From assembly GCF_001913155.1 (NCBI RefSeq), contig NZ_CP018760.1:2852001-2916000 (forward strand): a DNA stretch of 64,000 nucleotides. The letters run 5' to 3'. Source of the stretch: Maribacter hydrothermalis. GTDB taxonomy: Bacteria; Bacteroidota; Bacteroidia; Flavobacteriales; Flavobacteriaceae. Made by a program: the position numbers and the translations under genes. The notes beneath the pieces are model-generated. The model saw only the letters and a program-made list of their open reading frames with translations, had not been told where the DNA came from and searched no databases. The number at the start of each line of letters is the position of its first letter. The stretch's first letter is position 1. Shown here piece by piece: positions 36,072 to 60,467 of the stretch.

Positions 36072-36103
36072 TTGCAAAAGAGCACGTTTAGATAGTACCT
36101 TTG
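36072..36103 (+). promoter_or_regulatory. Promoter of the GWD-like operon
   Basis: TTG at 36072-36074, 21 bp, then TACCTTTG at 36096-36103. This is a close match to the Bacteroidota pattern TTG-N19-21-TAnnTTTG. The predicted transcript start is near 36110, 17 bp before the start codon. Confidence 0.6.
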
Positions 36104-36126
36104 AGTAATAATTTAATACCATAAAA

Positions 36127-39054
36127 TTGAAAAATTATAACTTAAATTCCATTTACAGTATTTTAATTATTGCCCTTTTTACTTCCGTTACTATTGCATA
36201 TTCACAAACATCAGTACCTGCTGATAATATCAAAACTTTAGTTGAAAAGTATAAGAGTGACATTCGAGGTCCGTATAGAGATATTCGGTGGTTTTGTACC
36301 GATGGTAGTATACGCCAACCTAAAGACCCATGTCCCGATGATATAGGTCCTGGAGTGCAGCATGCACGGTATAAAGATGAGGTTGTTGCATTAGGGAAAA
36401 GCAATCATATCTTTTTTGGTCAAATATTGGCATTTTCTAATAATGAAGAGATTTGGGATTCTAATAACAACCATTCTCGATTAAAACAATACCAATTAGA
36501 TAAATACTTACGCCTTATTGATGATGGTTGGATAAATAAGAAAAGCCAGTATTATAGAGGTTCGGTACAGGTAGAAGATGAGGAAGCTTGGGGAATTGCT
36601 TTTTATAAGTGGATCTTGGCCAAAGATAGTGTGGTTGCAGATAATTTTTATTTCCTAAGACAATCTTTAAAAGATATACCACATAGTGGTGATGACAATG
36701 TTGCACAGTTAATGCGAAGCGAATCGAAAGTTATTTCTGATCTATATACTCCGTTTATGGATTTAAGAACTAAAATTCATAGCCAGCCCGAGAAATCTGA
36801 TATTCAGAAAGTACTTGATTTTAAAACTAAGAATCAAAAATCATTAACTACTGATTTAAATAAGAAACTAGATGGCTTGGTAACTACCATGCAGACTTTT
36901 TTTAAGCCGGTAGATGTTCAGGCATTATTGAATAAATCTAAATTGGTAAAAGGGACAACTTTAGGGGATAAAGTACAAACATTTGTTCAGGGATTATCAA
37001 GCAATGAAAAACCGGCTTATTTGGTAAATGAAACAGCACAATTACTTTTAGATATAAGAGAAGGATTACTAGAAGAAAAACGACCATTGGCACGTTTACA
37101 ATTATTGGATATTTCATTAAAGTTAGAAGAACTTTTATTTCAAAATGCACCAAATTGGGAACCTACTACTGTTAGCGAACAATTAGAGAAAATATGTGCC
37201 TTGACCACGGCCTCGGTAGGTGCAGGATATTTAGAATTATGGGAATGGGAACAAGTTTCTGGGACCTTAAGCAAGTTTGGTCAAGAGCAATTAAGTTTGG
37301 CAGAGTTGACTCAAGTGTTAGAAACAGCAAGAGCCGCAGTAGAGTGGAGTGCTGCCATGGTTAAAGCAAATTATCAGGAAGTGGTAGATGTATACACCAC
37401 TTTTGAACCAAAATCATATGCCTTTATAGATGATAGAATAAGAGGTTCCATGGCTTTGCACTTAGGAAAAAGTGTTGGTGAATTAGGCGATTTTATCGCC
37501 AAAGAATCTGCACTAACAAATATGGTGATGGATATACCTAACCAAAGTACGTTTAGAGGGCTAAATCCTGGGTATGCTTTTGGTGAACTGGTTGTCGTAG
37601 ATGGGTCATCGGAAGATATAGAAGTGTCTTCGGATAAAATTTATATTTTTCAACGTTCTCCGTCAGATCTAAAACCTGTTGCCGGTATTGCCACTGTGGC
37701 CGAGGGTAATATGGTTTCTCACGTGCAATTACTAGCACGTAATTTAGGAATACCAAATGCAGCCTTATCCGATGCTAATCTTCAAAGTTTAAAAAAGTAT
37801 GATGGCGACCGTGTGTTCTATGCGGTTTCTAATAAGGGTAACGTCATAATTAAGCCCGAAGCAAAAATGACCGAGCAAGAACGAGAGCTTTTTGTGAAGA
37901 AGGAAAGAAACACCGATAAAATTGAAGTACCTGTTGAAAAAATTCAATTGGGAAATACCGATGTGCTGAATATGCGAAATGTAGATGCCAGTGATTCAGG
38001 CGCTTTATGCGGACCAAAGGCAGCTAATCTTGGCCAATTGAAAAAAATGTTCCCTGAGCAAGTGGTTGAAGGATTGGTAATTCCGTTCGGGATTTTTAGA
38101 GATCACATGGATCAGCAAATGCCAGGCGAGAATAGCTCGTATTGGGAATATTTAAATGCTATGTTTACAGAAGCCGAGCGTATGCGAAATGCAGATGTGC
38201 CGGAGCCAGAAGTTGAGAATTATCAATTACGTCAATTAGAGACTTTAAGAGAAGCTATTAAAAAAATGCCGTTGAAGGCTGATTTTATGAATCAGTTAGA
38301 AGCTAAGTTCAAATCGGTCCTGGGTTCGGACCTAGGTGCAATACCTGTATTTTTACGTAGCGATACCAACATGGAGGATTTAAAGGATTTTACCGGGGCA
38401 GGTCTTAACCTTACCTTGTTTAATGTTTTGGATAAGGAGAAGATTTTAAATGGCGTAAAAGAAGTTTGGGCATCGCCATATACGGAGCGTAGTTTTAAAT
38501 GGCGCCAGAAGTATTTATTGAATCCAGAAAATGTATTTCCGTCTATTTTGGTGATCCCAAGTGTAGATGTAGATTACTCCGGAGTTTTAATTACAAAGGG
38601 AATCAACTCTGGTAATGACCAAGATTTAACGATTGCTTTCAGTAGAGGTGCCGGTGGTGCGGTTGATGGGCAATCGGCAGAAACCTATACTATTTATGAT
38701 ACAGGTGGATATAGATTATTAGCTCCAGCTCGTGAACCTAAGTATAATTCGTTACCTGCTACAGGCGGTACTGGCAAGAAGGTTGCTACATTTCAAAAAA
38801 GAGTGGTGAACGAGAATAATTTAAATGAAATAAAGCAATTGGCAAAAACCATTCGAGAAACATTACCAAAAGAAACAAATTCCGATTACGAAGGTGCTTA
38901 TGATGTAGAGCTTGGTTTTAAAGAAGATAAACCATGGTTGTTTCAAATTCGCCCTTTTGTTGAGAATAAAAAGGCATTAAGTTCAGGATATTTAGAGTCT
39001 ATTACCCCGAAAATTAATACACAGAAAGAGATTTCATTAAGTACAAAATTATAA
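36127..39054 (+). CDS. Exported glucan-water-dikinase-like protein (PPDK-N plus phosphohistidine domain)
   Basis: A 975-residue protein with a signal peptide (about 33 residues, ending AYSQTS; TTG start). The helical N-terminal half (to about 480) contains FCTDGSIRQPKDPCPDDIGPG. Then comes a swivel domain with the phosphohistidine motif MVSHVQLLARN (His532), close to the SHVSVRARN motif of glucan water dikinase, and a C-terminal ATP-binding domain of the PPDK-N type from GPKAANLGQL (about 629) through FLRSDTNMEDL to FQIRPF (Arg942). No PEP-binding barrel follows. This order equals that of alpha-glucan/phosphoglucan water dikinases, which move the beta-phosphate of ATP via His to a glucan. Export into the periplasm, where ATP is scarce, is unexpected. 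Confidence 0.8.
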   Translation: MKNYNLNSIYSILIIALFTSVTIAYSQTSVPADNIKTLVEKYKSDIRGPYRDIRWFCTDGSIRQPKDPCPDDIGPGVQHARYKDEVVALGKSNHIFFGQILAFSNNEEIWDSNNNHSRLKQYQLDKYLRLIDDGWINKKSQYYRGSVQVEDEEAWGIAFYKWILAKDSVVADNFYFLRQSLKDIPHSGDDNVAQLMRSESKVISDLYTPFMDLRTKIHSQPEKSDIQKVLDFKTKNQKSLTTDLNKKLDGLVTTMQTFFKPVDVQALLNKSKLVKGTTLGDKVQTFVQGLSSNEKPAYLVNETAQLLLDIREGLLEEKRPLARLQLLDISLKLEELLFQNAPNWEPTTVSEQLEKICALTTASVGAGYLELWEWEQVSGTLSKFGQEQLSLAELTQVLETARAAVEWSAAMVKANYQEVVDVYTTFEPKSYAFIDDRIRGSMALHLGKSVGELGDFIAKESALTNMVMDIPNQSTFRGLNPGYAFGELVVVDGSSEDIEVSSDKIYIFQRSPSDLKPVAGIATVAEGNMVSHVQLLARNLGIPNAALSDANLQSLKKYDGDRVFYAVSNKGNVIIKPEAKMTEQERELFVKKERNTDKIEVPVEKIQLGNTDVLNMRNVDASDSGALCGPKAANLGQLKKMFPEQVVEGLVIPFGIFRDHMDQQMPGENSSYWEYLNAMFTEAERMRNADVPEPEVENYQLRQLETLREAIKKMPLKADFMNQLEAKFKSVLGSDLGAIPVFLRSDTNMEDLKDFTGAGLNLTLFNVLDKEKILNGVKEVWASPYTERSFKWRQKYLLNPENVFPSILVIPSVDVDYSGVLITKGINSGNDQDLTIAFSRGAGGAVDGQSAETYTIYDTGGYRLLAPAREPKYNSLPATGGTGKKVATFQKRVVNENNLNEIKQLAKTIRETLPKETNSDYEGAYDVELGFKEDKPWLFQIRPFVENKKALSSGYLESITPKINTQKEISLSTKL

Positions 39055-39055
39055 T

Positions 39056-39649
39056 ATGAAAAGTATCTGGCTGTTATTAATTGCTACGCTATTTTTTGTT
39101 TTTATTGGGTGCGATTTAGATGATGACGATGGGGTTGATGAAGAACTGCCAGCGATAACCACTGCAGGATTAAATACATTTGGATGTCTTATTAATGGAC
39201 AAGTGTATGTGCCTAAAAAAGGAAGCTTTTGTTTAGACTGTGCGAATACCCCAAAATTGCAATTGACTTATGGCGAAATTTTTGAAGGGTATCGATTTGC
39301 TTTAGGGACTCATAATGATATAGATGGAGATGTTGCCATGACATTGGAACTATTTAATGGTGTAGCGCCTTTAACCGAAGGGTTATATTCCCTTTCACAA
39401 ACAATATTAGAGGGCAATGATATTCCTATTTCCAATGCCTCTTGCTGGATTAGGAAAAAAATTAGTGGGCAAAAAATTGAATCAGAATTTTACTCAAATG
39501 AAAACATTGGTGGAGTTCTGGAAATCATTAAAATTGATGAAGAAAATAAGTATATATCTGGGACTTTTTATTTTTCGGCAGTAGATGGTAATGGTCAATT
39601 CGTTACTATAACCGATGGTCGTTTTGATGTTACGTATAAGAGTTTTTAA
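39056..39649 (+). CDS. Lipoprotein of unknown function in the GWD-like operon
   Basis: A 197-residue lipoprotein with lipobox FFVFIGC (Cys19), followed by an aspartate-rich linker DLDDDDGVDEE. The mature domain begins with TFGCLINGQVYVPKKGS, a start also seen in DUF6252-like Bacteroidota lipoproteins, and has a CLDCAN pair. It begins 1 bp after the stop codon of the dikinase-like gene, so the two are almost certainly co-transcribed and translationally coupled. Confidence 0.7.
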   Translation: MKSIWLLLIATLFFVFIGCDLDDDDGVDEELPAITTAGLNTFGCLINGQVYVPKKGSFCLDCANTPKLQLTYGEIFEGYRFALGTHNDIDGDVAMTLELFNGVAPLTEGLYSLSQTILEGNDIPISNASCWIRKKISGQKIESEFYSNENIGGVLEIIKIDEENKYISGTFYFSAVDGNGQFVTITDGRFDVTYKSF

Positions 39650-39669
39650 AAATTACTATTAATACAAGT

Positions 39670-40932
39670 ATGAAGAAAATTATAGTATTACTAATTGTTG
39701 TTTTAATTGCATCAGCATTTACCACATATACCTACTACCCAATTGACGGTTACGAACGTACAGGTATAAAACGATTAAAACGTTTAGAATTAATTAAAAG
39801 TGGGGAAATTAAAAATGTCCCGGCGTTACCTGCAGGTGCTTTAAAGTCTTATAACGAAATTCAATTAAACTTACTATCAAGAAAGAATGATAGTGCCATG
39901 GGTTTAATGCAGGTTAACGAGGCTTTTCAGAAAGAAATCAGTGCACTGTTCCGAGGTTTGGATAAAAGTTATTCATTGACCGTTTTAGATATCTCCGACC
40001 CAGAAAATGTACGTTACGCAGAACGAAATGAAACATCGGGCTATCAACCCGGTAGTGTAGGTAAATTGGCTGTTTTAGTCGGATTGTTTACCCAGTTAGA
40101 AAAAATTTATCCGGATTCATTCGAAAAAAGAACGGAGCTGTTAAAGAACAAATCGGTAAAAGCAGGCGTGTGGGGCTTAACTGATGAGCACACCATTCCT
40201 ATCTATAATATCGAAAAAAACACCTTGGTAAAACGACAGGTGATTGCTAGTGATGTATTTACTTTATATGAATGGGCAGACCATATGCTTTCTGTCAGTA
40301 ACAATGGCGCAGCAAGTATTGTGTGGAGAGAAACACTCTTAATGGCGGCATTTGGAGAGAAATATCCAGAGTTGACCCAAGAAGAAGCAGATACTTATTT
40401 TAAGGAAACACCAAAGAAGGAATTGACGGATTTAAGCAATGATGTAGTCAACTTGCCGTTGCGAGATTTAGGTATTACATCAGATGAATGGCGATTAGGT
40501 AGTTTCTTCACTAGAGGAGCAAATACGTATGTCGGTGATAAAGGTGGGAGTATCGGCTCTCCACAAGGTCTAATGAAATTTTTGGTTCAGTTAGAGCAAG
40601 GTAACGTAGTCGATGAAGCTTCTAGTTTAGAAATGAAACGATTAATGTATATGACGGATCGCAGAATTAGATATGCACAATCGCCAGCATTGAAAGAAGC
40701 TGCTGTGTACTTTAAATCGGGCTCCTTATACAAATGTGACCGAAGCAAAGACGAAGAATGTGGGAAATATATGGGGAACGTCACTAATTTTATGAACTCG
40801 GTCATCATAGTTGAACACCCAGATAATTGTAGGTATATGGTGGTGTTAATGACCAATGTTCTCCGTAAAAACTCCGCCAGCGACCACATGTATTTGGCAG
40901 GAAATATTGATAAGATTATACGAAAAGGATAA
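39670..40932 (+). CDS. Class-A-beta-lactamase-fold serine hydrolase
   Basis: A 420-residue exported protein (signal anchor LIVVLIASAFTTY). The penicillin-binding/beta-lactamase triad is visible: SxxK as QPGSVGKL (Ser129, Lys132), SxN as SNN (Ser210-Asn212) and KTG replaced by KSG (Lys349-Gly351). It is longer than true class A beta-lactamases (about 290 residues), with inserted segments near 130-190 and 225-265, and so may act on another ester or amide, for example in the cell wall. It is third in the operon after the dikinase-like gene and lipoprotein, 20 bp after the latter. A related protein is encoded at 57151-58056. Confidence 0.75.
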   Translation: MKKIIVLLIVVLIASAFTTYTYYPIDGYERTGIKRLKRLELIKSGEIKNVPALPAGALKSYNEIQLNLLSRKNDSAMGLMQVNEAFQKEISALFRGLDKSYSLTVLDISDPENVRYAERNETSGYQPGSVGKLAVLVGLFTQLEKIYPDSFEKRTELLKNKSVKAGVWGLTDEHTIPIYNIEKNTLVKRQVIASDVFTLYEWADHMLSVSNNGAASIVWRETLLMAAFGEKYPELTQEEADTYFKETPKKELTDLSNDVVNLPLRDLGITSDEWRLGSFFTRGANTYVGDKGGSIGSPQGLMKFLVQLEQGNVVDEASSLEMKRLMYMTDRRIRYAQSPALKEAAVYFKSGSLYKCDRSKDEECGKYMGNVTNFMNSVIIVEHPDNCRYMVVLMTNVLRKNSASDHMYLAGNIDKIIRKG

Positions 40933-44113: not shown

Positions 44114-44692
44114 ATGAAAATAGTGATACTAAATGGGCACCCAGATAATGAAAGCTTTGGTTTTGCTTTGGCAGAAGCATATAAAAAAGGAGTAATTACT
44201 TCTGGAGCAGAATTTAAAGAGATTGTAATACGAGATTTAGACTTTAATGTAAACTTGCAATTTGGATATCGAAAACGTACGGAGCTGGAGGCAGATTTGT
44301 TAGTAGCGCAAGAAAAAATAAAATGGGCAGACCATTTAGTTTGGATTTATCCGATTTGGTGGGGCTCATTTCCAGCTATTTTAAAAGGGTTTATAGACAG
44401 AGTTTTTTTACCGGGTTTTGCTTTTAAAAAAGTTGAAAACTCTAAAATAAAATGGGAAAAGTTATTAAAAGGGAAAACAGCAAGAATTATATCTACTTTA
44501 GATCAACCTGCTTGGTATTATAGGCTTGTAAATAAGGAGCCAAGTACAAATGCTATGAAGAAATTGGTGTGCGATTTTTGCGGAATATCCCCGGTAAAAG
44601 TGACAACCATTGGATCATTACGACTTTCTGAAGATAGATACAGGCGTAAATGGCTAACAAAAATTGAAAAACTTGGACAACAGAATAAATAA
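44114..44692 (+). CDS. Flavodoxin-fold NAD(P)H oxidoreductase
   Basis: A 192-residue protein of the quinone reductase/modulator-of-drug-activity type. It begins with MKIVILNGHPDNESFGFALAEAY (phosphate-binding loop for FMN or FAD) and has the characteristic DHLVWIYPIWWGSFPAILKGFIDRVFLPGFAF. These enzymes reduce quinones or related electrophiles with two electrons. It is followed after 1 bp by the class D beta-lactamase gene, so the pair is probably transcribed together. Confidence 0.9.
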   Translation: MKIVILNGHPDNESFGFALAEAYKKGVITSGAEFKEIVIRDLDFNVNLQFGYRKRTELEADLLVAQEKIKWADHLVWIYPIWWGSFPAILKGFIDRVFLPGFAFKKVENSKIKWEKLLKGKTARIISTLDQPAWYYRLVNKEPSTNAMKKLVCDFCGISPVKVTTIGSLRLSEDRYRRKWLTKIEKLGQQNK

Positions 44693-44693
44693 A

Positions 44694-45521
44694 ATGTTAA
44701 CTGTAATATTATTACTATTATGTTTCTCTTGCAAAGAGCATAACTCAAAAGCTACCCAACAGGTATTTGAAAGAGATTGTACAGTAGTGAAATCAGAATT
44801 TCAATCCATTATAGATAGTTCAGATGTTATCGGGTCTATTTTAATTTTTGATTTAAATAAATCCGTGTATTATTCTAATGATTTTAAATGGGCAAAAACA
44901 GGAAAATTACCCGCATCAACCTTTAAAATACCGAATACTATAGTAGGTCTTGAAACTGGTGTAATTAGAAGTGACAGCACAATTTTTAAGTGGGATGGAG
45001 AAGAAAAATGGCTAAAAGCGTGGGAACAAGATTTAGTTTTGAAAGACGCGTTTCAGTTTTCTTGTGTTCCCTGTTACCAAGAAGTAGCTAGGGAAATTGG
45101 TGTTGATAGAATGAATGATTACATTAAAATTTTAAAGTATGGAACTTTGGATATTGATTCAGTTAATATTGATAATTTTTGGCTAGAAGGCAAATCTAGA
45201 ATTACCCAGTTTCAGCAAATTGATTTTTTAAAGCGGTTTTATAAAAATGAACTTCCAATCTCTAGAAGAACATCTGAAATAGTAAAAAGTATACTGCTGA
45301 TTAAAAATACTGACCATTATAGGTTAAGTGGAAAAACGGGTTTGTCTAATGTAAATGAGGATTATAATGGTTGGTTTGTAGGCTATTTAGAACAAGATAA
45401 TAACACGTATTTTTTTGCCACAAATTTGGAGCCTAAAGGAAAAATTAATCTAGATTCGTTTATTAAAAAAAGGTTAGATGTAACAACTTTAGCTTTTGAA
45501 ATACTTAATATAATTGACTGA
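44694..45521 (+). CDS. Class D (OXA-type) beta-lactamase
   Basis: From the ATG at 44694 the protein has 275 residues and a lipoprotein-type signal (LLLLCFSC, Cys13). A longer TTG frame overlaps the previous gene and would spoil the signal, so it was rejected. Class D motifs: STFK (Ser75, Lys78, the site of carboxylated lysine), SxV as SCV (123-125), KYGT in place of the usual YGN, FWLEG near 162-166, KTG (214-216) and GWFVGYLE. It should hydrolyse beta-lactams in the periplasm, with spectrum unknown. Neighbours are an oxidoreductase and regulators; no mobile element or integron site was seen. Confidence 0.88.
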   Translation: MLTVILLLLCFSCKEHNSKATQQVFERDCTVVKSEFQSIIDSSDVIGSILIFDLNKSVYYSNDFKWAKTGKLPASTFKIPNTIVGLETGVIRSDSTIFKWDGEEKWLKAWEQDLVLKDAFQFSCVPCYQEVAREIGVDRMNDYIKILKYGTLDIDSVNIDNFWLEGKSRITQFQQIDFLKRFYKNELPISRRTSEIVKSILLIKNTDHYRLSGKTGLSNVNEDYNGWFVGYLEQDNNTYFFATNLEPKGKINLDSFIKKRLDVTTLAFEILNIID

Positions 45522-50024: not shown

Positions 50025-52652
50025 ATGATTCATAAAAATGCTGAGGAAGAAAGATTAGCAACAGAGGATAATTATAAAAATTGGAAAAGATGGGGTCCGT
50101 ATTTAGCGGAACGGCAATGGGGTACTGTAAGGGAAGATTACAGTGAAAATGGATATGCATGGAGTTTTGTTAACCATGATAAAGCACGAAGTAATGCCTA
50201 TAGATGGGGCGAAGAAGGTATTGGTGGTTTTTGTGATTCACGAGAAATACTTTGCTTGGCACCGGCTTTTTGGAATGGTAAAGACCCTATTTTAAAAGAG
50301 CGTTTATTTGGATTAACTAATGATGAAGGTAACCATGGAGAGGATGTTAAAGAACTTTATTTTCACCAAGTATCGACACCTACACATTCCTATGCAAAGT
50401 ATTTATATAAGTATCCGCAGAAAAAATTTCCTTACGCCGAGTTGTTAAAAAAGAATGGGGAGAGGAGTAGAGAAGAGGCTGAATTTGAGTTGCTTGACAC
50501 CAAGGCTTTTACAAAAAACACTTATTTCGATTGCTTTATAGAATATGCTAAAGAAGATGTGGGCGATATTTTAATGAAAGTAACGGTGATAAATAGGGGG
50601 GCTAAGACGGCTAAAATCCATGTTTTGCCACATCTTTGGTTTCGTAATTTCTGGAAACATAATGATCGTTTTGAACGACCACAAATGAAATCCATCTCAG
50701 ATGCTTCGGTACAGAGCAGAAGTACACGAAATGGACGTTATTATTTTTATCATGAAGATGGTGAGCAACTGTTTTGCGAAAATGAAACGAACAACAAACG
50801 CATCTATAACGTACCTAATGAAGTAGATTATGTAAAAGATGGTATTAATGACCACGTTGTAAATGGTTTAGATACCGTTAACCCGGCTAAGAAAGGTTCT
50901 AAGCTTGCTGTTTGGCATAAATTAAGTCTAAAAGCTGGCGAAGAAAAGGTTATAAGAGTACGATTAAGTAAAAAGAAATTAGCAAACCCGTGGGGTAAAT
51001 TCGACACAATTTTTGAGAATAGAATTAAGGAATGTGAGGAATTTTATGGTGATATTTTAAAGAAAGATTTGCCAGCAGACCAACAAGAAATTGCTAGAAA
51101 AGCCTTTTCTGGTTTGTTATGGACAAAGCAATTCTATTACTACGATGTGTATAAATGGCTTTTTGGAGGCCCAGGAGAAGCTAAACCGCATCGAAATGAT
51201 TCTCGTAACGCAAAATGGCAACATCTTACGAACAGACATATAATTTCTATGCCAGATAAGTGGGAGTATCCTTGGTACGCTGCATGGGACCTTGCTTTTC
51301 ATATGGCTTCTTTTGTAGAAATTGACCCTTACTTCGCAAAAGAACAATTACTACTTGTATTAAAAGAAGGGTATATGCACCCCAACGGACAAATACCTGC
51401 GTACGAATGGAATTTTAGTGATGTAAATCCGCCGGTACATTCTTGGGCAGTTTGGAATGTTTATGAAAAAGATAAAAAACGAAAAGGAAAAGGAGATACT
51501 AAGTTTCTAGAAAAAGCATATCAAAAATTATTGGTAAACTTTACATGGTGGGTGAACCAAAAAGACACCAGTGGAACTAACCTTTTTGATGGTGGGTTTT
51601 TAGGACTGGATAATATTGGGGTGTTTGACCGGAACCATATGCCCCAAGGTATAAAACGTATGCAACAAGCAGATGCTACCAGTTGGATGGCCATGTTTAC
51701 CTTGAATATGTTTCGTATGACCATAGAGTTGGCAAAAGCTAATCCTATTTATGAAGATAGTGTTGCCAAGTTTTTTAAGCATTTCTTGAATATAGCTTGG
51801 GCCATGCACCATATTGGTCAAAAAGAAATTTCACTTTGGGATGATGAGGATAATTTCTATTATGATGTAGTAGAAATGCATAATGGTTCAACAGACCGTT
51901 TAAAAGTACGATCATTAGTTGGTATTATTCCATTATTTGCTGTTGAAATTATTCATAAAGATTTGTTCGAGGAATTAAAACATTTTAAGGTAAGAGCTGC
52001 CGAAATTGTAAGAACAAGACCAGACTTGGCATCATTGGTTTCTAATATTGAGGAGTTTAATGTGGACGGTAATTATCTGTTCTCTATTATGCGAGGGTTT
52101 AGATTAGAAAAATTACTTTATCGTTTGTTAGATGAAAAAGAGTTTTTGTCTGATTATGGCATACGCTCACTTTCTAAATATCATGAAGAACATCCATATG
52201 TTTTTAAGCATAATGGCCATCATCAAATTCAATATGAATCTGGTGAAAGTCGCTCCAATATGTTCGGTGGAAACTCTAACTGGCGCGGACCTATTTGGAT
52301 GCCCTTAAATTATATGATTATTCAATCATTAAGGAAATATTATTCATTTTACGGTAAGGAGTATGTTTATGAGTTTCCAACTGGTTCGGGTATTAAACTG
52401 AATTTGAACGAGATTGCGAACGAACTTTCTAAACGACTAATAAAACTTTTTCAAGCAAATGGGGATGGTAAATTTCAGTACCATTCTGAGGACGTCAATA
52501 AGGTATTTACTAAAGACGAACATTTTAAAAATGAACATTTCTTCTATGAATTTTTTGACGGAGATTCTGGTAAGGGATTAGGAGCTGCCCACCAAACAGG
52601 GTGGACAGCCTTAGTTGCCAATTTAATTATGGAGTTGGAGCAGCATTCCTAA
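50025..52652 (+). CDS. MGH1-type (GH63-related) glucosidase
   Basis: An 875-residue cytoplasmic (no signal peptide) protein. The N-terminal half is a beta-rich super-sandwich (AERQWGTVREDYSENGYAWSF, FHQVSTPTHSYAKYLYKYPQ), the C-terminal half an (alpha/alpha)6 barrel with GQIPAYEWNFSDVNPPVHSW, GGFLGLDNIGVFDRNHMP, ATSWMAMFTLNMFR, GGNSNWRGPIWMPLNY and GLGAAHQTGWTALVANL. These are typical of the bacterial 'glucosidase' family related to mannosyl-oligosaccharide glucosidases (GH63). The likely substrate is a glucose-containing oligosaccharide or glucosylglycerate-type compound. A paralog fills the right end of the window on the opposite strand. Confidence 0.85.
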   Translation: MIHKNAEEERLATEDNYKNWKRWGPYLAERQWGTVREDYSENGYAWSFVNHDKARSNAYRWGEEGIGGFCDSREILCLAPAFWNGKDPILKERLFGLTNDEGNHGEDVKELYFHQVSTPTHSYAKYLYKYPQKKFPYAELLKKNGERSREEAEFELLDTKAFTKNTYFDCFIEYAKEDVGDILMKVTVINRGAKTAKIHVLPHLWFRNFWKHNDRFERPQMKSISDASVQSRSTRNGRYYFYHEDGEQLFCENETNNKRIYNVPNEVDYVKDGINDHVVNGLDTVNPAKKGSKLAVWHKLSLKAGEEKVIRVRLSKKKLANPWGKFDTIFENRIKECEEFYGDILKKDLPADQQEIARKAFSGLLWTKQFYYYDVYKWLFGGPGEAKPHRNDSRNAKWQHLTNRHIISMPDKWEYPWYAAWDLAFHMASFVEIDPYFAKEQLLLVLKEGYMHPNGQIPAYEWNFSDVNPPVHSWAVWNVYEKDKKRKGKGDTKFLEKAYQKLLVNFTWWVNQKDTSGTNLFDGGFLGLDNIGVFDRNHMPQGIKRMQQADATSWMAMFTLNMFRMTIELAKANPIYEDSVAKFFKHFLNIAWAMHHIGQKEISLWDDEDNFYYDVVEMHNGSTDRLKVRSLVGIIPLFAVEIIHKDLFEELKHFKVRAAEIVRTRPDLASLVSNIEEFNVDGNYLFSIMRGFRLEKLLYRLLDEKEFLSDYGIRSLSKYHEEHPYVFKHNGHHQIQYESGESRSNMFGGNSNWRGPIWMPLNYMIIQSLRKYYSFYGKEYVYEFPTGSGIKLNLNEIANELSKRLIKLFQANGDGKFQYHSEDVNKVFTKDEHFKNEHFFYEFFDGDSGKGLGAAHQTGWTALVANLIMELEQHS

Positions 52653-54302: not shown

Positions 54303-57125
54303 TTACCGCGAATCGCTTATGGCGGTGAAAGCATCCAAAGCAAAACTTCTAACTTTTGGGTCAGTATCATTAAGATGAGATTCTACTATACCTAAATAAC
54401 GCGGTTCTTTTTGTTGTGCAATAAGAAACAATACAGCTAGTTTAATTTTTAAATCATTGCCTAGTAAAAGCAGTCTAAAACATTCTAGCTCTGTAGGTAT
54501 TTTATGTTTTATTTTTTGAAGCTCTTCTTCTGAAGATATATCTAAAGCGGTTTCTTCAATTATGGGTAGCAGTTTACGCTTTAATTCGCCCGTAAGCAGG
54601 TTATCTAAAAATTCAATGGCATTATGTTGTGCTTCCTGTTTCTGACTTAAAAGACCTTCATAAGCAATGGCAACATCATTTTGCTGGTATCGTAAGCCTA
54701 AAAGTTTAAAAATACGCTCTAAACCAGAATCTAAACGGCGTTCTAAAAGTTCTAAAAGGCTTGTGCGTGCGTTACGTTCTGCATCACCAATTTCTTTTTT
54801 AGATTTTGTTCTGTTTCTATAAGAGATAATTATTTGGGTATGCATAGATGATAATGTTTGATGATGCAACTTACACTCATCAAAAATTACAGATACCACC
54901 TTATAACGATTAAATTTTAACTGAGGATGTGATGCTCTAATAGCGCTTAATGCTCTTACCACTTCTAAACGAACGGTTAGGTCATTATCTTTTAAAATAG
55001 CTAATAAGTGATGTACCGCTTCTTTTGAGTAAAACGATTGCATCGCCATAGGTATAAAACGAATCACCGATAATGACTGTAACCTTTCTTGTACATTTTT
55101 GCGTAACAACGGTAATATATGTGGGCCATACTGCTTAAAAGCTTCAATTACAGCTGGTCTATATCTTTTTTGTTCTAAATAAGGAATAATATGTTGACCT
55201 AAAGATGGGTCCATAGTAGTCCCTATAGATTTAATAGTGGTCTTTACAATTTCCTCATTTTTGTTTTTTAAAAATTCTAACAAGGTATTGTGGTAAATAG
55301 GCATATTGGCAACGCCTAATATTTCAATAACGGTTTCGGTATAAGGTATATCCTCAATATTTTTTTTACTGTTGTCAAGCGCTTTTGAAATTCGGTCTAA
55401 TAAAGAATAACGTTGCTTTAATGAGTGGTTGTTTTTAGCTTCCCGAGCTAAACAATATAATGCAGCCGATGATATTCGTTTATTGGAATCTTCTAAATAC
55501 GCATCAAATACAAAAGATTTGTCCTTATGACTAAAACTTAAAATGTATGCTAGGGTAGCAATGGTTAAATCGTGGTCATCAATTTTTAATAGCTCAGACA
55601 CTTCTGCCGTCATACTTTTAAAGTTCAAATAGTATAAGTTTTGAATAGCCGATAATTTTACTTTGTTACTTGGGTGGTCTAATAACAATTCTACATCTTC
55701 TGCAAAACGCCTATCGTTTATTTCCATCAGCTTGTCAAGCATAAAAAGTATTTGTTCTTCGCTACCTTTTTTAAAAACAGAACGCATACCTGCCACTACA
55801 GATTCCTTTGTTGTAGCTATTTTTTTTGTCTTTTTAAAAGAATTGGTGAGTAACTCTAAATTGGTTCTAAACGTTTTATAATACTCTATGCGCACTTTGT
55901 AGATAAAATACAACCAAAGACAAACAAGCACTATAATTAATATTCCAATATAAAACGAAGGGAGGTCTAGTCCGCGAACAACAAATATTAAAAGGCACCC
56001 TGCAATACCTGTGGCTAAACTATCTACAACGACATCTATAAACGATTTTGTTCTGTTTTTTAAATCGAAAGGTAATGGCAGTGTTAAAAGCTCTGAGGCA
56101 CTTTTGTGAATAGATTGTTTTAGTATACCATCCATCGCTTTAATTACAACAACAGCAGACAACTCAGGTAACATTAGAAATAAAATACTTCCTCCAAAAA
56201 TTCCCATAGGTAATAATAAAAGCGAAAAACCAACACCCCAAATACCTACAATTCTATGCGTAAAAAACAGCTGAATTACTAGTGATAATAGATTGAAAGT
56301 TGAAAACCAAAATGCGAAAAAAGAGGTGAGCTCATCAGCATCCGTTATGGCAGAAGATGCAAATTCACTAAACAGATAATCTACTAATTTAGCAACAACC
56401 ACACTTACGGCAACAATGCTAGCAATGTAAGTAAGGTGTTTAGATTTTAAAATAAGCTTTAAAGGAGGCTCGGTATTGCTGGCCAAATTTTTATGCTTTT
56501 TTATGGAGCCATTCTTCTTGACTCTAATATGCCAAATTTTACGAAGCAGTGGGATACAAAAGAAAAGAAGTAAGGCGGCAACGAACATCAAGTTTTCATT
56601 ACCAATAAGTGGTGCAAGAATAGAGGTAAGGTAACCTCCAAAAATTCCACCAATAATAGCGCCAGAGCCAATGAAACCAAATAGTCTTTTTGCCTCTCTA
56701 ATATTAAAAACTAAATTCGCTAATACCCAAAACTGCGAGGCGGATAGCACCGCATAAATGGCAACCCAGATGTAGAAAAAGTATAATAATACGCCACTAA
56801 CTACATGTAGCGACAAGAGTATTCCTAAACCAATTAAAATGAGTATTGAACTTACTATGGTTATTTCAATTACCTTTTTAAGAGGGAATCTAGATACTGC
56901 TTTTGAATAGAAATAGGAGGTGGTAACCGCTGTAATAGCAACTAATAAAAAGGCAAATGGTAATTGCTCAATGCCTAATTCTGATAGAAACAGCGCATTT
57001 ACCGTAGGCTTAATAATAAGTAATACCGCAATGACCAAAAAAATGTAGGCGAGCATCCACAGAGATACTTTGAACTCGCCTTCACGAACATCGAATATTT
57101 TTTTTATGAGTTTTTCTACCATCAA
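54303..57125 (-). CDS. ADP/ATP-carrier-like (NTT/MFS) transporter with HEAT-repeat tail
   Basis: A 940-residue inner membrane protein. About twelve membrane segments fill residues 20-430 (SLWMLAYIFLVIAVLLIIKPTVNALFL, QFWVLANLVFNIREAKRLFGFIGSGAIIGGIFGGYL), with the FxxGSGAxIGGxxGG-type segment that resembles nucleotide (ATP:ADP, Npt1/Npt2) transporters. Residues 440-940 are helical with HEAT-like repeats (AIQNLYYLNF, AALYCLAREAK, VVRALSAIRAS, LAVLFLIAQQ). NTTs normally swap ATP for ADP in obligate intracellular bacteria; in a free-living flavobacterium the substrate is uncertain. It is downstream of, and 25 bp from, the class-A-fold hydrolase gene. Confidence 0.7.
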   Translation of the reverse strand: MMVEKLIKKIFDVREGEFKVSLWMLAYIFLVIAVLLIIKPTVNALFLSELGIEQLPFAFLLVAITAVTTSYFYSKAVSRFPLKKVIEITIVSSILILIGLGILLSLHVVSGVLLYFFYIWVAIYAVLSASQFWVLANLVFNIREAKRLFGFIGSGAIIGGIFGGYLTSILAPLIGNENLMFVAALLLFFCIPLLRKIWHIRVKKNGSIKKHKNLASNTEPPLKLILKSKHLTYIASIVAVSVVVAKLVDYLFSEFASSAITDADELTSFFAFWFSTFNLLSLVIQLFFTHRIVGIWGVGFSLLLLPMGIFGGSILFLMLPELSAVVVIKAMDGILKQSIHKSASELLTLPLPFDLKNRTKSFIDVVVDSLATGIAGCLLIFVVRGLDLPSFYIGILIIVLVCLWLYFIYKVRIEYYKTFRTNLELLTNSFKKTKKIATTKESVVAGMRSVFKKGSEEQILFMLDKLMEINDRRFAEDVELLLDHPSNKVKLSAIQNLYYLNFKSMTAEVSELLKIDDHDLTIATLAYILSFSHKDKSFVFDAYLEDSNKRISSAALYCLAREAKNNHSLKQRYSLLDRISKALDNSKKNIEDIPYTETVIEILGVANMPIYHNTLLEFLKNKNEEIVKTTIKSIGTTMDPSLGQHIIPYLEQKRYRPAVIEAFKQYGPHILPLLRKNVQERLQSLSVIRFIPMAMQSFYSKEAVHHLLAILKDNDLTVRLEVVRALSAIRASHPQLKFNRYKVVSVIFDECKLHHQTLSSMHTQIIISYRNRTKSKKEIGDAERNARTSLLELLERRLDSGLERIFKLLGLRYQQNDVAIAYEGLLSQKQEAQHNAIEFLDNLLTGELKRKLLPIIEETALDISSEEELQKIKHKIPTELECFRLLLLGNDLKIKLAVLFLIAQQKEPRYLGIVESHLNDTDPKVRSFALDAFTAISDSR

Positions 57126-57150: not shown

Positions 57151-58056
57151 CTAAAGTACTGGCTTTTTTAACACTTTCTCAATAGGTTTTACTAAATCTC
57201 GTATAATTTGTTCGCCATTTGCATCATCTATCAAAGCAACTAAAATGTATCTTCTATTGTCATCTTCGCCCCAAACTAAAATAGAATCGGAGTGATACGT
57301 ACGCCAAGAACCCGATTTTCTGAATAGTCTAGCATTCGGAGCAATCTGATCTAAAGTGTTAACAAATTTATGGTGCAACTCTGGATCTTCCATAATAGCC
57401 AACATTTGCTTAGACCTTTTCTGATTTACTAATTTACCGTTTGCCAATAAATAATAGTACCTACATACTTGAGTTACCGATGCAGCATGACTCAAATTTT
57501 TTAATGGTTCGCGATTGGTGTCTCCGCCGCTTCCGTAACGCTTACCTACCCATAATCCCCCACCTTTCTGCTCATCGTAGAAAGCATATTTAGGATCTGT
57601 CATAACCGCTTCTAACTTTTCATAACCAACACGGTCAATCATTCTAGTAGAAGCTGCATTGTCAGATTTACTAATCATAAGACGCATATCTTTTTTCACT
57701 TCAGAAGTTTCTTTCAATTCACCTTTTTCTATAGCATCCATTGCAGCTAATAGAATGGCAATTTTTGGTAAACTGGCAGCATACATCATATGGTTGCCAT
57801 TTACACGAGCAAAACGAACATTTTCTGGGTTACTTAGGTCAACCAGACCCACAGCCATTTTCTTTTGTACGATAAGGTCGTTCCATTCTGGGTGTGATGT
57901 TAACTCATCTCTTAAACTGGTTTGTAACGAACTGTCAAGTAGTTTTTGTAGCGGTTTTATCTTCGAATTATCAATATGAAGTGGCAGCTCGTCTTGTGCA
58001 TTTATTGTCATGCACAGTAGAAATGAAAAAAGGAAAAAGACTTGGGTAGATCTCAT
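57151..58056 (-). CDS. Class-A-beta-lactamase-fold serine hydrolase
   Basis: A 301-residue exported protein (signal to INAQ). Motifs: SxxK as ASLPKIAIL (Ser95, Lys98), SDN (131-133) and KSG (Lys247-Gly249). Size and motif spacing match true class A beta-lactamases, though the omega-loop glutamate that deacylates beta-lactams could not be assigned with confidence. It may be a beta-lactamase or a cell-wall esterase/peptidase. First gene of a pair with the NTT-like transporter, and divergent from the DgcN/DgcA unit. Confidence 0.8.
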   Translation of the reverse strand: MRSTQVFFLFSFLLCMTINAQDELPLHIDNSKIKPLQKLLDSSLQTSLRDELTSHPEWNDLIVQKKMAVGLVDLSNPENVRFARVNGNHMMYAASLPKIAILLAAMDAIEKGELKETSEVKKDMRLMISKSDNAASTRMIDRVGYEKLEAVMTDPKYAFYDEQKGGGLWVGKRYGSGGDTNREPLKNLSHAASVTQVCRYYYLLANGKLVNQKRSKQMLAIMEDPELHHKFVNTLDQIAPNARLFRKSGSWRTYHSDSILVWGEDDNRRYILVALIDDANGEQIIRDLVKPIEKVLKKPVL

Positions 58057-58091: not shown

Positions 58092-58322
58092 GGTAATGTA
58101 CTGATTAGGCATATGTTAATTTTTGTTTTCTTTGAACAATGGGTAATTTCAACAAAAACGCCATTTCGATATAAAAGTTGTAAAATGAAGTGTTAAAATT
58201 TTAATTATTTTCAGATTAAATACTACCTATGTATCCCTTTTTTTAAGGTTTGGTTTACAATAGTATAAAAGAGAATATTAAATTAATAGTTGTATCTTAA
58301 AAAATGGATTATAAAGTTACTT

Positions 58323-59384
58323 ATGAATCTTAAAGATGGTGTAAAAACTGCTGAGAATAAAGTGTCTGCTGAGGCACGTAGACTTAGTGATATGGTTAAA
58401 GATACTAGTAAATCTTTAGTAGACCGACTAGAATGTTTTGAAGACATTATAAGTTTAGAAGTAGGGGACACTGGTTTAAGCCGTGCAAAGACTTTAGAGC
58501 GGGAATTTGACCTTAGACAATTATATATTAAATATGAAGGTGATAACCCAACAGGCACCCAAAAAGACCGAATTGCATTTGCTCAGTTATATGATGCCTT
58601 AAGAAGAGAATTTACAATTGTTAGTCTAGCCACTTGTGGTAATTATGGTGTGGCTATGGCATTAGCCGCAGATTTAGCAGGTATGGCTTGTAAAATTTAT
58701 ATACCAGAAACTTACCATACGGATCGCATCGTTGAAATGGAAAGCTTAAATGCTGAAATTATCCGTATACCGGGTAGCTATGAAGATGTTGTTATGGAAA
58801 GTTCAAAATTAGCAACTGAAAATGGTTGGTACGACGCCAACCCTGGGGGTGCAAATACACCGTTACAAATATCTGCCTACGCATTAATTGCGCAAGAGAT
58901 TTTTGAAGATTTGGGGGATGCTCCTAAATACTGCGCAGTACCAGTTTCTAACGGAACTTTATTTGCTGGTATTTACAGGGGCTTTGTAAATTTATATAAA
59001 AGAGGAAAAACTTCTCGTATTCCAAAAATGATTGCGGCATCTTCCTCACATAAAAACCCCATTGTTGAATCGTTCTTACAGGGTCTTGATTATTGTAAAG
59101 ATTTAGATCCGGCGGCAATAAAAGAAACAAAATATAATGAACCATTAATTAATTGGCACAGCTTTGATGGGGAGGAAGCCTTATACGCTTTAAAAGAATC
59201 TGAAGGAGAGGCATTTAATATTAGTGATAAGAAACTGAAAGAGATGACCTCGCTTCTATATAAGAAGGAAGGGTTTCGAATTTTACCTGCATCGACAGCA
59301 GGTTTAATAGGACTTCTTGAATTAGATGAAAAAATGAATTTTGAGCCAGACCGTTTTGTGGCTGTACTCACTGCAAAAAATTAA
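58323..59384 (+). CDS. Fold-type II PLP-dependent enzyme (threonine-synthase-like)
   Basis: From the ATG at 58323 the protein has 353 residues; an upstream in-frame TTG at 58290 is less likely. The cofactor lysine is in NPTGTQKDR (Lys81), and the phosphate-binding loop in ATCGNYGVA near 104-112, patterns of the threonine synthase/cysteine synthase group. Later: DANPGGANTPLQISAYALIAQEI and CAVPVSNGTLFAGIYRGF. It is shorter than a true threonine synthase and lacks its N-terminal domain. It starts a four-gene unit with DUF1611, an epimerase and NhaD (gaps 9, -4 and 11 bp), so the substrate may be a D- or beta-substituted amino acid (inference). Confidence 0.8.
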   Translation: MNLKDGVKTAENKVSAEARRLSDMVKDTSKSLVDRLECFEDIISLEVGDTGLSRAKTLEREFDLRQLYIKYEGDNPTGTQKDRIAFAQLYDALRREFTIVSLATCGNYGVAMALAADLAGMACKIYIPETYHTDRIVEMESLNAEIIRIPGSYEDVVMESSKLATENGWYDANPGGANTPLQISAYALIAQEIFEDLGDAPKYCAVPVSNGTLFAGIYRGFVNLYKRGKTSRIPKMIAASSSHKNPIVESFLQGLDYCKDLDPAAIKETKYNEPLINWHSFDGEEALYALKESEGEAFNISDKKLKEMTSLLYKKEGFRILPASTAGLIGLLELDEKMNFEPDRFVAVLTAKN

Positions 59385-59393
59385 ATAAAATAG

Positions 59394-60467
59394 ATGAAAA
59401 AAGTTATTGACGGTAAAGCACTTGTATATTGTGAAGGGGCGTTTAATACGCCTTATGGAAAAACTGCTCACGGCCTAGTTCGTTTTACCGAACGCTATGA
59501 GGTTGTCGGAGTTTTAGATGAAAAATATGCGGGTAGAGATGCTGGTGATGTATTAGATGGTAGACCAAACGGAATTCCGGTTTTTAAAGATTTAGAAGCT
59601 GCAATTATTGCGCTTAAAACTACTAATAATTTACCAAGCTATTTAGTAATTGGTCTTGCTCCAGATGGCGGGAGATTGCCACAAGTAGCAAAAGCAACTA
59701 TTAAAGCGGCTTTGCAACAAGGTTGGAATGTTGATAGTGGACTGCACGATTTTTTAACTAATGACCCAGAATTGGTAGCATTAGCAAAAGACAAAAATGT
59801 AAAAATTAGGGATATAAGAAAAACTCCTGACCGTGACCAGTTGCATTTTTTTACGGGTGATATTGAAAAGGTAGATTGTTTAAAATTGGCTGTTTTAGGT
59901 ACCGATTCTGCTTTAGGTAAACGTACCACAGCTTGGATTTTGGTCCATGCGTTCCGCGCGGCTGGTAAAAAGGCCGAAATGATTGGAACCGGACAAACAG
60001 GATGGATGCAAGGTGCCAAATATAGTATGGTAATGGATAGTTGTATTAATGACTTCGTTTCTGGAGAAATAGAGCATGCAGTTGTCAGTGCATACAATAA
60101 TGAGAATCCAGATGTAATCGTTATTGAAGGCCAAGGTAGTTTAATGAACCCTGCCTATCCTGGCGGATTTGAAATACTAGCAGCTGGTAGACCAGATTAT
60201 GTAATTCTACAACATGCGCCAAAGCGTTTAGAGTATGATGGTTTCCCTGGTTATAAAATGCATTCGTTAGCGGAACAAATTAATGCTATTCAGGTGATTT
60301 CTGGGAAAGAGGTAATCGCAATTACCGTAAATCATGAAGATATGCAGAAAGATGAAATTCTTGATGTATGCAAATCTATTACACTAGAAACAAAACTTCC
60401 TGCTTTTGATGTATTGGAGTATGGTGCAGAAGATTTAATTACCCTTTTGATGTCTAAACTTAAATGA
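59394..60467 (+). CDS. DUF1611 / DgcN-like protein
   Basis: A 357-residue cytoplasmic protein of the DUF1611 family. An N-terminal Rossmann-like domain (VVGVLDEKYAGRDAGDVL, LVIGLAPDGGRLP) precedes a P-loop domain with LGTDSALGKRTT (Gly169-Thr179) and IEGQGSLMNPAYPGGFEIL. DUF1611 members were shown in marine bacteria to be N-acyltransferases (DgcN) that act in D-glutamate breakdown with the racemase DgcA. The gene overlaps the next one, a DgcA-like epimerase, by 4 bp (ATGA), strongly linking both. I infer the same chemistry here without proof. Confidence 0.85.
   Translation: MKKVIDGKALVYCEGAFNTPYGKTAHGLVRFTERYEVVGVLDEKYAGRDAGDVLDGRPNGIPVFKDLEAAIIALKTTNNLPSYLVIGLAPDGGRLPQVAKATIKAALQQGWNVDSGLHDFLTNDPELVALAKDKNVKIRDIRKTPDRDQLHFFTGDIEKVDCLKLAVLGTDSALGKRTTAWILVHAFRAAGKKAEMIGTGQTGWMQGAKYSMVMDSCINDFVSGEIEHAVVSAYNNENPDVIVIEGQGSLMNPAYPGGFEILAAGRPDYVILQHAPKRLEYDGFPGYKMHSLAEQINAIQVISGKEVIAITVNHEDMQKDEILDVCKSITLETKLPAFDVLEYGAEDLITLLMSKLK

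What the first reader, a model, noticed from the sequence alone, without database searches (positions are those of the whole stretch)
36072..40932. Exported glucan-water-dikinase-like enzyme in an operon with a lipoprotein and a penicillin-binding-fold hydrolase
The 975-residue protein has swivel (MVSHVQLLARN, His532) followed by the PPDK-type ATP-binding domain and no PEP barrel, the order of plant glucan water dikinases, yet carries a signal peptide. A dikinase needs ATP, which the periplasm is not known to supply. The partner genes (1-bp and 20-bp gaps, one clear promoter) are a lipoprotein and a class-A-fold hydrolase with SVGK/SNN/KSG motifs. Together they may phosphorylate or modify an envelope glycan, a system I do not recognise from the literature.
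Basis: partly seen in the sequence, partly recalled or inferred. Interest (0 to 1): 0.78.

Follow-up and report, generated by a model that had tools for sequence, protein, structure and literature searches.

The report
Exported dikinase module with nucleotide carrier
Some bacteria of the Bacteroidota group carry four genes that are nearly always inherited together: an exported enzyme of a type that uses ATP, two exported penicillin-binding-like hydrolases, and a membrane protein related to ATP carriers; this suggests an unknown way of doing ATP-dependent chemistry outside the cytoplasm.

Summary
In detail: the 975-aa protein (36127-39054) has swivel-then-ATP-grasp order, no PEP barrel found, an intact active site and strong signs of export. 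The partner list changes. The lipoprotein is an insert seen only here and in two other Maribacter loci. The hydrolase (hyd1) is a fixed partner: it follows the dikinase in 79 of the 80 best named loci, and strong matches fall in exactly the dikinase genomes (34 of 149 Flavobacteriaceae; 11 of 296 Bacteroidota). Two partners were missed because they lie about 13 kb away in this window: an NTT-family (ATP/ADP-carrier-type) protein with HEAT repeats (54303-57125, minus) and a second exported beta-lactamase-fold hydrolase (57151-58056, minus). In 64 of the 80 loci all four form one locus; full-length NTT-HEAT occurs in the same 34 of 149 genomes. The module is secure; nucleotide supply is a hypothesis at roughly 0.45.

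The parts
36072..36103 (+). Bacteroidota-type promoter-like site (TTG, 21 bases, TACCTTTG) upstream of the dikinase
   Evidence: 3 matches in the window, 2.26 expected by chance; supported by position only; the consensus is recalled
36127..39054 (+). exported dikinase (dik), 975 aa, TTG start
36127..36204 (+). inferred signal peptide, residues 1-26, with invariant Gln27 directly after it
   Evidence: Q27 invariant in 23 of 23; hydrophobic start in 123 of 127; 2 of the other 4 have only 9 residues there and 2 have short, less hydrophobic starts; pairwise identity 16% in columns 2-26 against 57% in 47-975
37558..37866 (+). phosphohistidine swivel region, about residues 478-580, His532 at 37720-37722
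   Evidence: H532 in 127 of 127
38005..38976 (+). PPDK-type ATP-grasp domain, residues 627-950, with K631, R744, E928, Q940, R942
   Evidence: E 1.9e-23; residues in 127 of 127
39056..39649 (+). lipoprotein, Riean_0653 family (NF052634); accessory insert, not a core part
   Evidence: E 3.2e-38; among loci held, found only in copies of the window (L001, L173), L095 and L096
39670..40932 (+). hyd1, exported beta-lactamase-fold serine hydrolase, 420 aa (SxxK/SxN/KSG)
54303..57125 (-). NTT-HEAT: NTT (TLC)-family membrane domain plus C-terminal HEAT repeats, 940 aa
57151..58056 (-). hyd2, second exported beta-lactamase-fold serine hydrolase, 301 aa (S95/K98, S131/N133, K247SG)

Best explanation
The four proteins form one envelope module. 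NTT-HEAT sits in the inner membrane and, by exchange, brings a nucleotide (most simply ATP out, spent nucleotide back) to the periplasm. The exported dikinase binds it in its ATP-grasp domain, passes the beta-phosphate to His532 on the swivel, and transfers it to an envelope substrate held by its N-terminal region (residues about 27-470, fold unknown). The two exported serine hydrolases act on the same substrate before or after phosphorylation; a peptidoglycan-type or other D-amino-acid or ester substrate is a guess from their fold. Shown by sequence: the module, its co-inheritance, the export signals, the intact catalytic residues and the NTT family assignment. Inferred: the transport direction and cargo, the phosphate acceptor, and that the hydrolases work on it. 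Separate confidences: module is a functional unit 0.95; dikinase is extracytoplasmic 0.93; it is an active phosphohistidine dikinase 0.85; NTT-HEAT supplies its nucleotide 0.45; the acceptor is a glycan 0.25.
For: Co-occurrence: over the same 149 Flavobacteriaceae genomes, full-length dikinase, full-length NTT-HEAT and hyd1 occur in the identical 34 genomes and in none of the other 115 (handle lists copied into). Hyd2 is strong in those 34 plus G127, where hyd2 and the first 39 residues of an NTT stand at the very end of a 10,156-base contig. Over 296 Bacteroidota, full-length dikinase and strong hyd1 fall in the identical 11 genomes; all 11 have an NTT-family match. Linkage: in the 80 best of 353 named relatives hyd1 follows the dikinase in 79; the 80th ends at a contig edge. 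All four genes in the same order and strands in 64 of 80. In 29 of the 34 genomes NTT and dikinase start within 6 kb of each other. They persist together when apart: NTT in the window (13 kb), G066, G093 and G125; hyd2 in G124; hyd1 and NTT in G318. The NTTs of 64 named loci plus the window fall into two types, 42% alike between types, while the dikinases are 66% alike between and 69% within, as if the slot were refilled. Export: signal region 16% identical against 57% for the rest; Cys57 and Cys69 both present in 123 of 127, both absent in 4, never one alone, as expected of a disulfide. Swivel His and five ATP-grasp residues in 127 of 127; the corresponding Lys, Arg and Glu contact ADP or Mg in rifampin phosphotransferase (passages of PMC4844700; correspondence recalled from motifs).
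Against: The module's NTT lacks the three AtNTT1 residues compared: K155 (ADP site), E245 and K527 (ATP site) align with L, A and T in the window protein (passages of PMC3306366; alignments; numbering check; the K155 stretch is a weak alignment). The cargo may not be ATP. Hmmscan did not list TLC for the window NTT, although the genome search did, 27.2 bits against a cut-off of 21, and AtNTT1 matched at E 3.1e-7. Of 13 other matching proteins examined, 12 have swivel His and all five ATP-grasp residues and look exported (by eye); 11 of these 12 lie in genomes with no match to the window's NTT, so an exported dikinase does not always need one. Two dikinase genomes, G338 and G322, have only a divergent NTT-HEAT or a single-domain NTT, away from the dikinase. 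Twelve of 80 named loci show no NTT in the stretch held: nine Maribacter (10 kb held, not searched further) and three near contig ends. In L109 hyd2 directly follows hyd1 with no NTT between. No structure could be predicted.
Confidence: 0.45

Rival explanations
1. Scavenging and import. The hydrolases release a compound from outside material, the exported dikinase phosphorylates it, and the NTT-like carrier takes the phosphorylated product (or nucleotide leftovers) inward, possibly against ATP. The carrier's cargo is then not mainly ATP for the dikinase.
For: The carrier lacks the AtNTT1 nucleotide-site residues; an NTT can carry other cargo: a paper titled as showing NAD transport by Chlamydia Npt1 is in the reference list seen (title only).
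Against: The dikinase would still need ATP outside the membrane; no uptake or catabolic gene is conserved beside the four (apart from the four core clusters no cluster is in more than 6 of 23 loci).
Confidence: 0.25
2. The dikinase works on nucleotides found outside the cell, and NTT-HEAT and the hydrolases serve the same envelope process in another role, for example as a HEAT scaffold or sensor, without feeding the enzyme.
For: Exported-looking dikinase-like proteins in genomes without a match to this NTT (11 of 12 examined), one type (L055, 1456 aa) with a type IX secretion tail. NTT-HEAT relatives also occur without the dikinase, beside an Omp85 barrel.
Against: Exact co-occurrence of full-length NTT-HEAT with this particular dikinase in 34 of 149 genomes, none elsewhere in that sample, and the two-type NTT slot.
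Confidence: 0.2
3. The N-terminal segment is not cleaved, or the protein stays in the cytoplasm, and it is an ordinary cytoplasmic dikinase next to cell-wall genes.
For: No experimental localisation and no dedicated signal-peptide predictor were available.
Against: Fast-evolving hydrophobic start before an invariant Gln; paired cysteines; the partner hydrolases of the window also begin with export-type segments (by eye).
Confidence: 0.05

Closest known systems
Plant glucan water dikinases (GWD/PWD)
   Same: Swivel before a C-terminal ATP-grasp domain, no PEP barrel (GWD order recalled). Plastid NTT supplying ATP to a compartment where GWD works is a suggestive parallel, by analogy only (recalled).
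   Different: No CBM or GWD1_pHisD match at E<=1; bacterial, exported, tied to hydrolases; substrate unknown.
PEP synthase / pyruvate phosphate dikinase
   Same: ATP-grasp and swivel are the nearest by sequence in the PDB (8a8e, E 8e-30 with the family profile).
   Different: Reversed domain order, no PEP/pyruvate barrel listed; exported.
Rifampin phosphotransferase and the two-component small-molecule dikinases (HpeHI)
   Same: ATP-grasp residues and phosphohistidine logic (passages of PMC4844700 and PMC12167813).
   Different: ATP-grasp first and swivel last in RPH; cytoplasmic (recalled); no linked carrier or hydrolases known to me.
NTT-HEAT fusion proteins of free-living bacteria (Major et al. 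2017, PMC5381601)
   Same: NTT domain followed by HEAT repeats; the passages seen call the fusions widespread, with unknown functional interplay.
   Different: The passages name a cyclic-nucleotide-binding neighbour, not a dikinase or serine hydrolase; here the fusion belongs to a dikinase module.
Class A beta-lactamase-like / PBP-like serine hydrolases (PF13354)
   Same: SxxK, SxN and KSG motifs, Pfam Beta-lactamase2.
   Different: Far below NCBI beta-lactamase cut-offs; paired with the dikinase; substrate unknown.

Membership tests
Glucan water dikinase | swivel followed by C-terminal ATP-grasp | tested here: met
Glucan water dikinase | GWD-type His domain (PF22973) | tested here: not met
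   no match at E<=1 in the protein or the genome
Glucan water dikinase | N-terminal carbohydrate-binding modules | tested here: not met
   no CBM family listed at E<=1
Glucan water dikinase | phosphorylates alpha-glucan | not testable with these tools
   needs an assay
PEP synthase / PPDK | PEP/pyruvate TIM barrel and ATP-grasp-first order | tested here: not met
Phosphohistidine dikinase (PEPS/PPDK/RPH/GWD superfamily) | swivel His plus ATP-grasp Lys, Arg, Glu, Gln, Arg | tested here: met
   127 of 127
Phosphohistidine dikinase (PEPS/PPDK/RPH/GWD superfamily) | AMP-forming beta-phosphate transfer | not testable with these tools
   needs an assay
NTT nucleotide carriers | TLC-type membrane domain | tested here: met
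   27.2 bits against cut-off 21; AtNTT1 E 3.1e-7; 4 of 4 orthologues scanned over the TLC cut-off; but not listed for the window protein by hmmscan
NTT nucleotide carriers | AtNTT1 functional residues K155, E245, K527 | tested here: not met
   L, A, T in the window protein
NTT nucleotide carriers | nucleotide exchange activity | not testable with these tools
   needs transport assay
NTT-HEAT fusions | HEAT repeats C-terminal to the NTT domain | tested here: met
Class A beta-lactamase | SxxK, SxN, K[ST]G | tested here: met
Class A beta-lactamase | match above a curated beta-lactamase cut-off | tested here: not met
   best 18.9 bits against 510 for the window's hyd2; none at E<=1 for hyd1
Anti-phage defence | match to a PADLOC model | tested here: not met
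   only one HEAT model for NTT-HEAT at E 0.0034

The most novel reading that the evidence does not exclude
A dedicated bacterial route that powers phosphotransfer chemistry in the periplasm: NTT-HEAT carries ATP or a related nucleotide out across the inner membrane to an exported dikinase, which phosphorylates an envelope polymer trimmed by two partner serine hydrolases. It would explain at least one branch of the uncharacterised NTT-HEAT proteins of free-living bacteria.
Probability: 0.4. Interest if true: 0.93.

Novelty: categorically new. Interest (0 to 1): 0.74.

Why it matters
The bacterial periplasm is generally taken to lack ATP (established view, recalled). A conserved module that joins an exported ATP-type enzyme to a nucleotide-carrier relative makes that view directly testable, gives a context to NTT-HEAT proteins of free-living bacteria, whose function is called unknown in the passages read, and points to an undescribed phosphorylated envelope component.

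Tried and rejected
Glucan water dikinase membership: rejected for lack of the GWD His domain and CBMs. Lipoprotein as core partner: rejected. A wider conserved operon with the ROK gene or other upstream genes: rejected; apart from the four core genes no neighbour cluster is in more than 6 of 23 loci. The 313-328 aa gene between hyd1 and NTT in L036 and L120 looks TerC-like to me (recalled, not scanned). Defence system: no PADLOC or PHROGs support. Plasmid-borne spread: 0 of 33 matched plasmid records cover 80% of the dikinase. The promoter count is not above chance. An S-adenosylmethionine carrier as a precedent for other NTT cargo was dropped, because I could not show that it is an NTT. Literature: the ten searches listed nothing on this module; only listings were seen except passages of PMC5381601, PMC4844700, PMC12167813 and PMC3306366, and the outline of PMC5381601. 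The co-occurrence was not corrected for shared ancestry; in the family sample 149 genomes give 148 genera in the tally.

Full report
What is there. The window is base 2852001-2916000 of a single-contig genome of 4.27 Mb. The closest named dikinase relatives are Maribacter species, 81-90% identical. The 975-residue protein has a PPDK-type ATP-grasp domain at 627-950 and, before it, a phosphohistidine swivel; both align to the PEP synthase 8a8e, where they come in the opposite order. No PEP barrel, carbohydrate-binding module or GWD His domain was listed at E<=1.

Is it active and exported? I aligned the window protein with 126 of the 240 listed hits of two protein searches, down to 39% identity. 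His532, Lys631, Arg744, Glu928, Gln940 and Arg942 are present in 127 of 127. In rifampin phosphotransferase, Lys22, Arg117 and Glu297 contact the nucleotide or Mg; Lys22Ala abolished activity, Glu297Ala did not (passages of PMC4844700). That these correspond to K631, R744 and E928 rests on the domain alignments and recalled motif positions. Export: 123 of 127 have a hydrophobic start; of the other four, two have only 9 residues before the conserved region and two have short, less hydrophobic starts. In 23 members the first 26 columns are 16% identical against 57% for columns 47-975, and an invariant Gln27 follows. Cys57 and Cys69 occur together in 123 of 127 and are both missing in 4, never singly, as expected of a disulfide outside the cytoplasm. 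There is no lipobox and no type IX sorting tail was listed, so the periplasm is the likeliest place.

The partners. The lipoprotein is not a core partner: among the loci held it occurs only in copies of the window and in two other Maribacter loci, L095 and L096. Hyd1 is. In the 30 loci returned of the 34 full-length family hits it directly follows the dikinase, apart from the lipoprotein in the window (30 of 30). In the best 80 of 353 named relatives it follows in 79; the other, L171, ends at a contig edge. The gap is at most 10 bp in 69 of 79; of the ten larger values, L140 and L158 come from my script starting in a short piece before a stop (their match ends give gaps under 10 bp), and the other eight are real, 89 to 1683 bp.

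Looking wider revealed two more genes. In 22 extended relatives plus the window, two further clusters recur downstream in 18 loci each: a ~943-aa protein and a ~311-aa protein, on the opposite strand. Pfam identifies the members scanned as TLC (ATP/ADP transporter) plus HEAT repeats, and as Beta-lactamase2. Both are in this window, about 13 kb past hyd1: 54303-57125 and 57151-58056, minus strand. The first is the only TLC match in the genome at E<=0.01. All four genes lie in the same order and orientation in 64 of 80 named loci. NTT is found downstream in 68 of 80 and hyd2 in 65 of 80. The 12 loci without NTT are nine Maribacter, where 10 kb were held and I did not look further, and three near contig ends; in two other Maribacter loci, L093 and L100, the NTT begins 7-8 kb past hyd1.

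Co-occurrence. The same 149 Flavobacteriaceae genomes were searched four times. Dikinase matched 46, of which 34 full length. NTT matched 40, of which 34 full length; the other six are single-domain or fragmentary. Hyd1 matched 34. The three sets of 34 are identical (Fisher p 2e-34, not corrected for ancestry). Hyd2 matched 36: the 34, G127 and, weakly, G028 (E 2.5e-4). In G127 hyd2 and the first 39 residues of an NTT stand at the end of a 10,156-base contig. NTT and dikinase start within 6 kb of each other in 29 of the 34. In 296 Bacteroidota, dikinase was full length in 11 of 21 matched, and hyd1 strong in 11 of 12 matched, the same 11. NTT matched 33 genomes including all 11: eight with a full-length NTT-HEAT, G207 with one split over two contigs, G338 with a divergent NTT-HEAT (30%) and a single-domain one, and G322 with a single-domain NTT only. 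Twenty-two genomes have an NTT-family match without the dikinase. The partners persist even when apart: NTT in the window, G066, G093 and G125; hyd2 in G124; hyd1 and NTT in G318.

The NTT slot. In 64 named loci plus the window the NTTs fall into two types, 42% identical between types, while their dikinases are 66% identical between and 69% within the two groups; pairwise distances of dikinase and hyd1 correlate at 0.89, of dikinase and NTT at 0.58. Arenibacter has both types (L145, L146 against L136-L138). Gene replacement in place, or unusually fast change, is the simplest reading. The slot is not always filled on the spot: in L109 hyd2 follows hyd1 directly, and in G093 the NTT lies 2 Mb away.

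Hydrolases. Hyd1 keeps S129-x-x-K132, S210-x-N212, K349-S-G351 and Cys356/Cys364 in 15 of 15 aligned. Hyd2 keeps S95/K98, S131/N133 and K247-S-G249 in 13 of 13 aligned. They lie far below curated beta-lactamase cut-offs, so PBP-like peptidases or esterases seem likelier than lactamases; no substrate is shown.

Evidence against the nucleotide-supply idea. In AtNTT1, K155 is assigned to the ADP site, K527 to the ATP site and E245 to translocation (passages of PMC3306366). I aligned the family profile to the AtNTT1 chain and fixed the numbering by the only offset that puts lysines at 155 and 527, which also gives E at 245. The window protein has Leu, Ala and Thr there; the K155 stretch is weakly aligned. 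Its cargo may therefore differ. Second, of 13 other matching proteins that I examined, 12 have all six catalytic residues and, by eye, an export-type start; the thirteenth, L191, lacks the swivel there. They come in two architectures, one of which (L055) has a type IX secretion tail. Eleven of the 12 lie in genomes without a match to the window's NTT. So an exported dikinase does not by itself require an NTT.

Reach. Named relatives of the dikinase include Salinibacter, Lewinella, KSB1, Calditrichaceae and Deltaproteobacteria records. Named relatives of hyd1 come from similar groups: Salinibacter, Calditrichota, KSB1, Krumholzibacteriia, Deltaproteobacteria. Whether the four genes are together in those other phyla was not tested.

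What is known. Major et al. 2017 describe NTT-HEAT fusions as widespread in bacteria and uncharacterised; the passages read mention a cyclic-nucleotide-binding neighbour and no dikinase. My searches found no description of this module. The nearest working parallel is the plastid, where an NTT brings ATP to a compartment in which glucan water dikinases act; that is an analogy from general knowledge.

Verdict. The module is real, conserved and undescribed as far as these searches show. The dikinase is very probably an active, exported enzyme. That the NTT-HEAT feeds it is the most economical mechanism but stays a hypothesis at about 0.45.

Noticed in passing
L217-L223 (genomes G388, G338, G334, G291, G226, G424): A second NTT-HEAT subfamily (~910 aa, 27-30% to the window's) sits in a different conserved gene cluster: an exported-looking protein that is an Omp85-type barrel in the one member scanned, a ~560-aa lipoprotein without Pfam match, and in 4 loci a relative of a calcineurin-like phosphoesterase lipoprotein.
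   Followed up: partly
L053-L057, L184-L188, L190, L192: Other exported-looking swivel plus ATP-grasp proteins of 624-727 aa and 830-1456 aa with intact catalytic residues; L055 has a lamin-tail domain and a type IX secretion tail.
   Followed up: partly
window 58290-61531: PALP enzyme, DUF1611 protein and enolase-family protein in a row, divergent from hyd2; resembles a D-glutamate or dipeptide-epimerase pathway (recalled).
   Followed up: no
window 44664-45521: A transpeptidase-domain protein with an STFK motif (PF00905, E 1.7e-34), class D beta-lactamase-like by recall, lies between the two halves of the module.
   Followed up: no
window 50025-52652 and 62844-63920: Two GH63/MGH1-like glycosidase ORFs lie either side of the NTT/hyd2 half of the module.
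   Followed up: no
L226 (G127 contig C123:8500-10156): Fragmented genome with hyd2 and the first 39 residues of an NTT at a contig end; dikinase and hyd1 not found in it.
   Followed up: partly
L011 / L037 (G148): The searched dikinase match runs over a stop codon near its start, while the extended locus L037 reads as a 966-aa ORF; probably the stop lies before the true start.
   Followed up: partly
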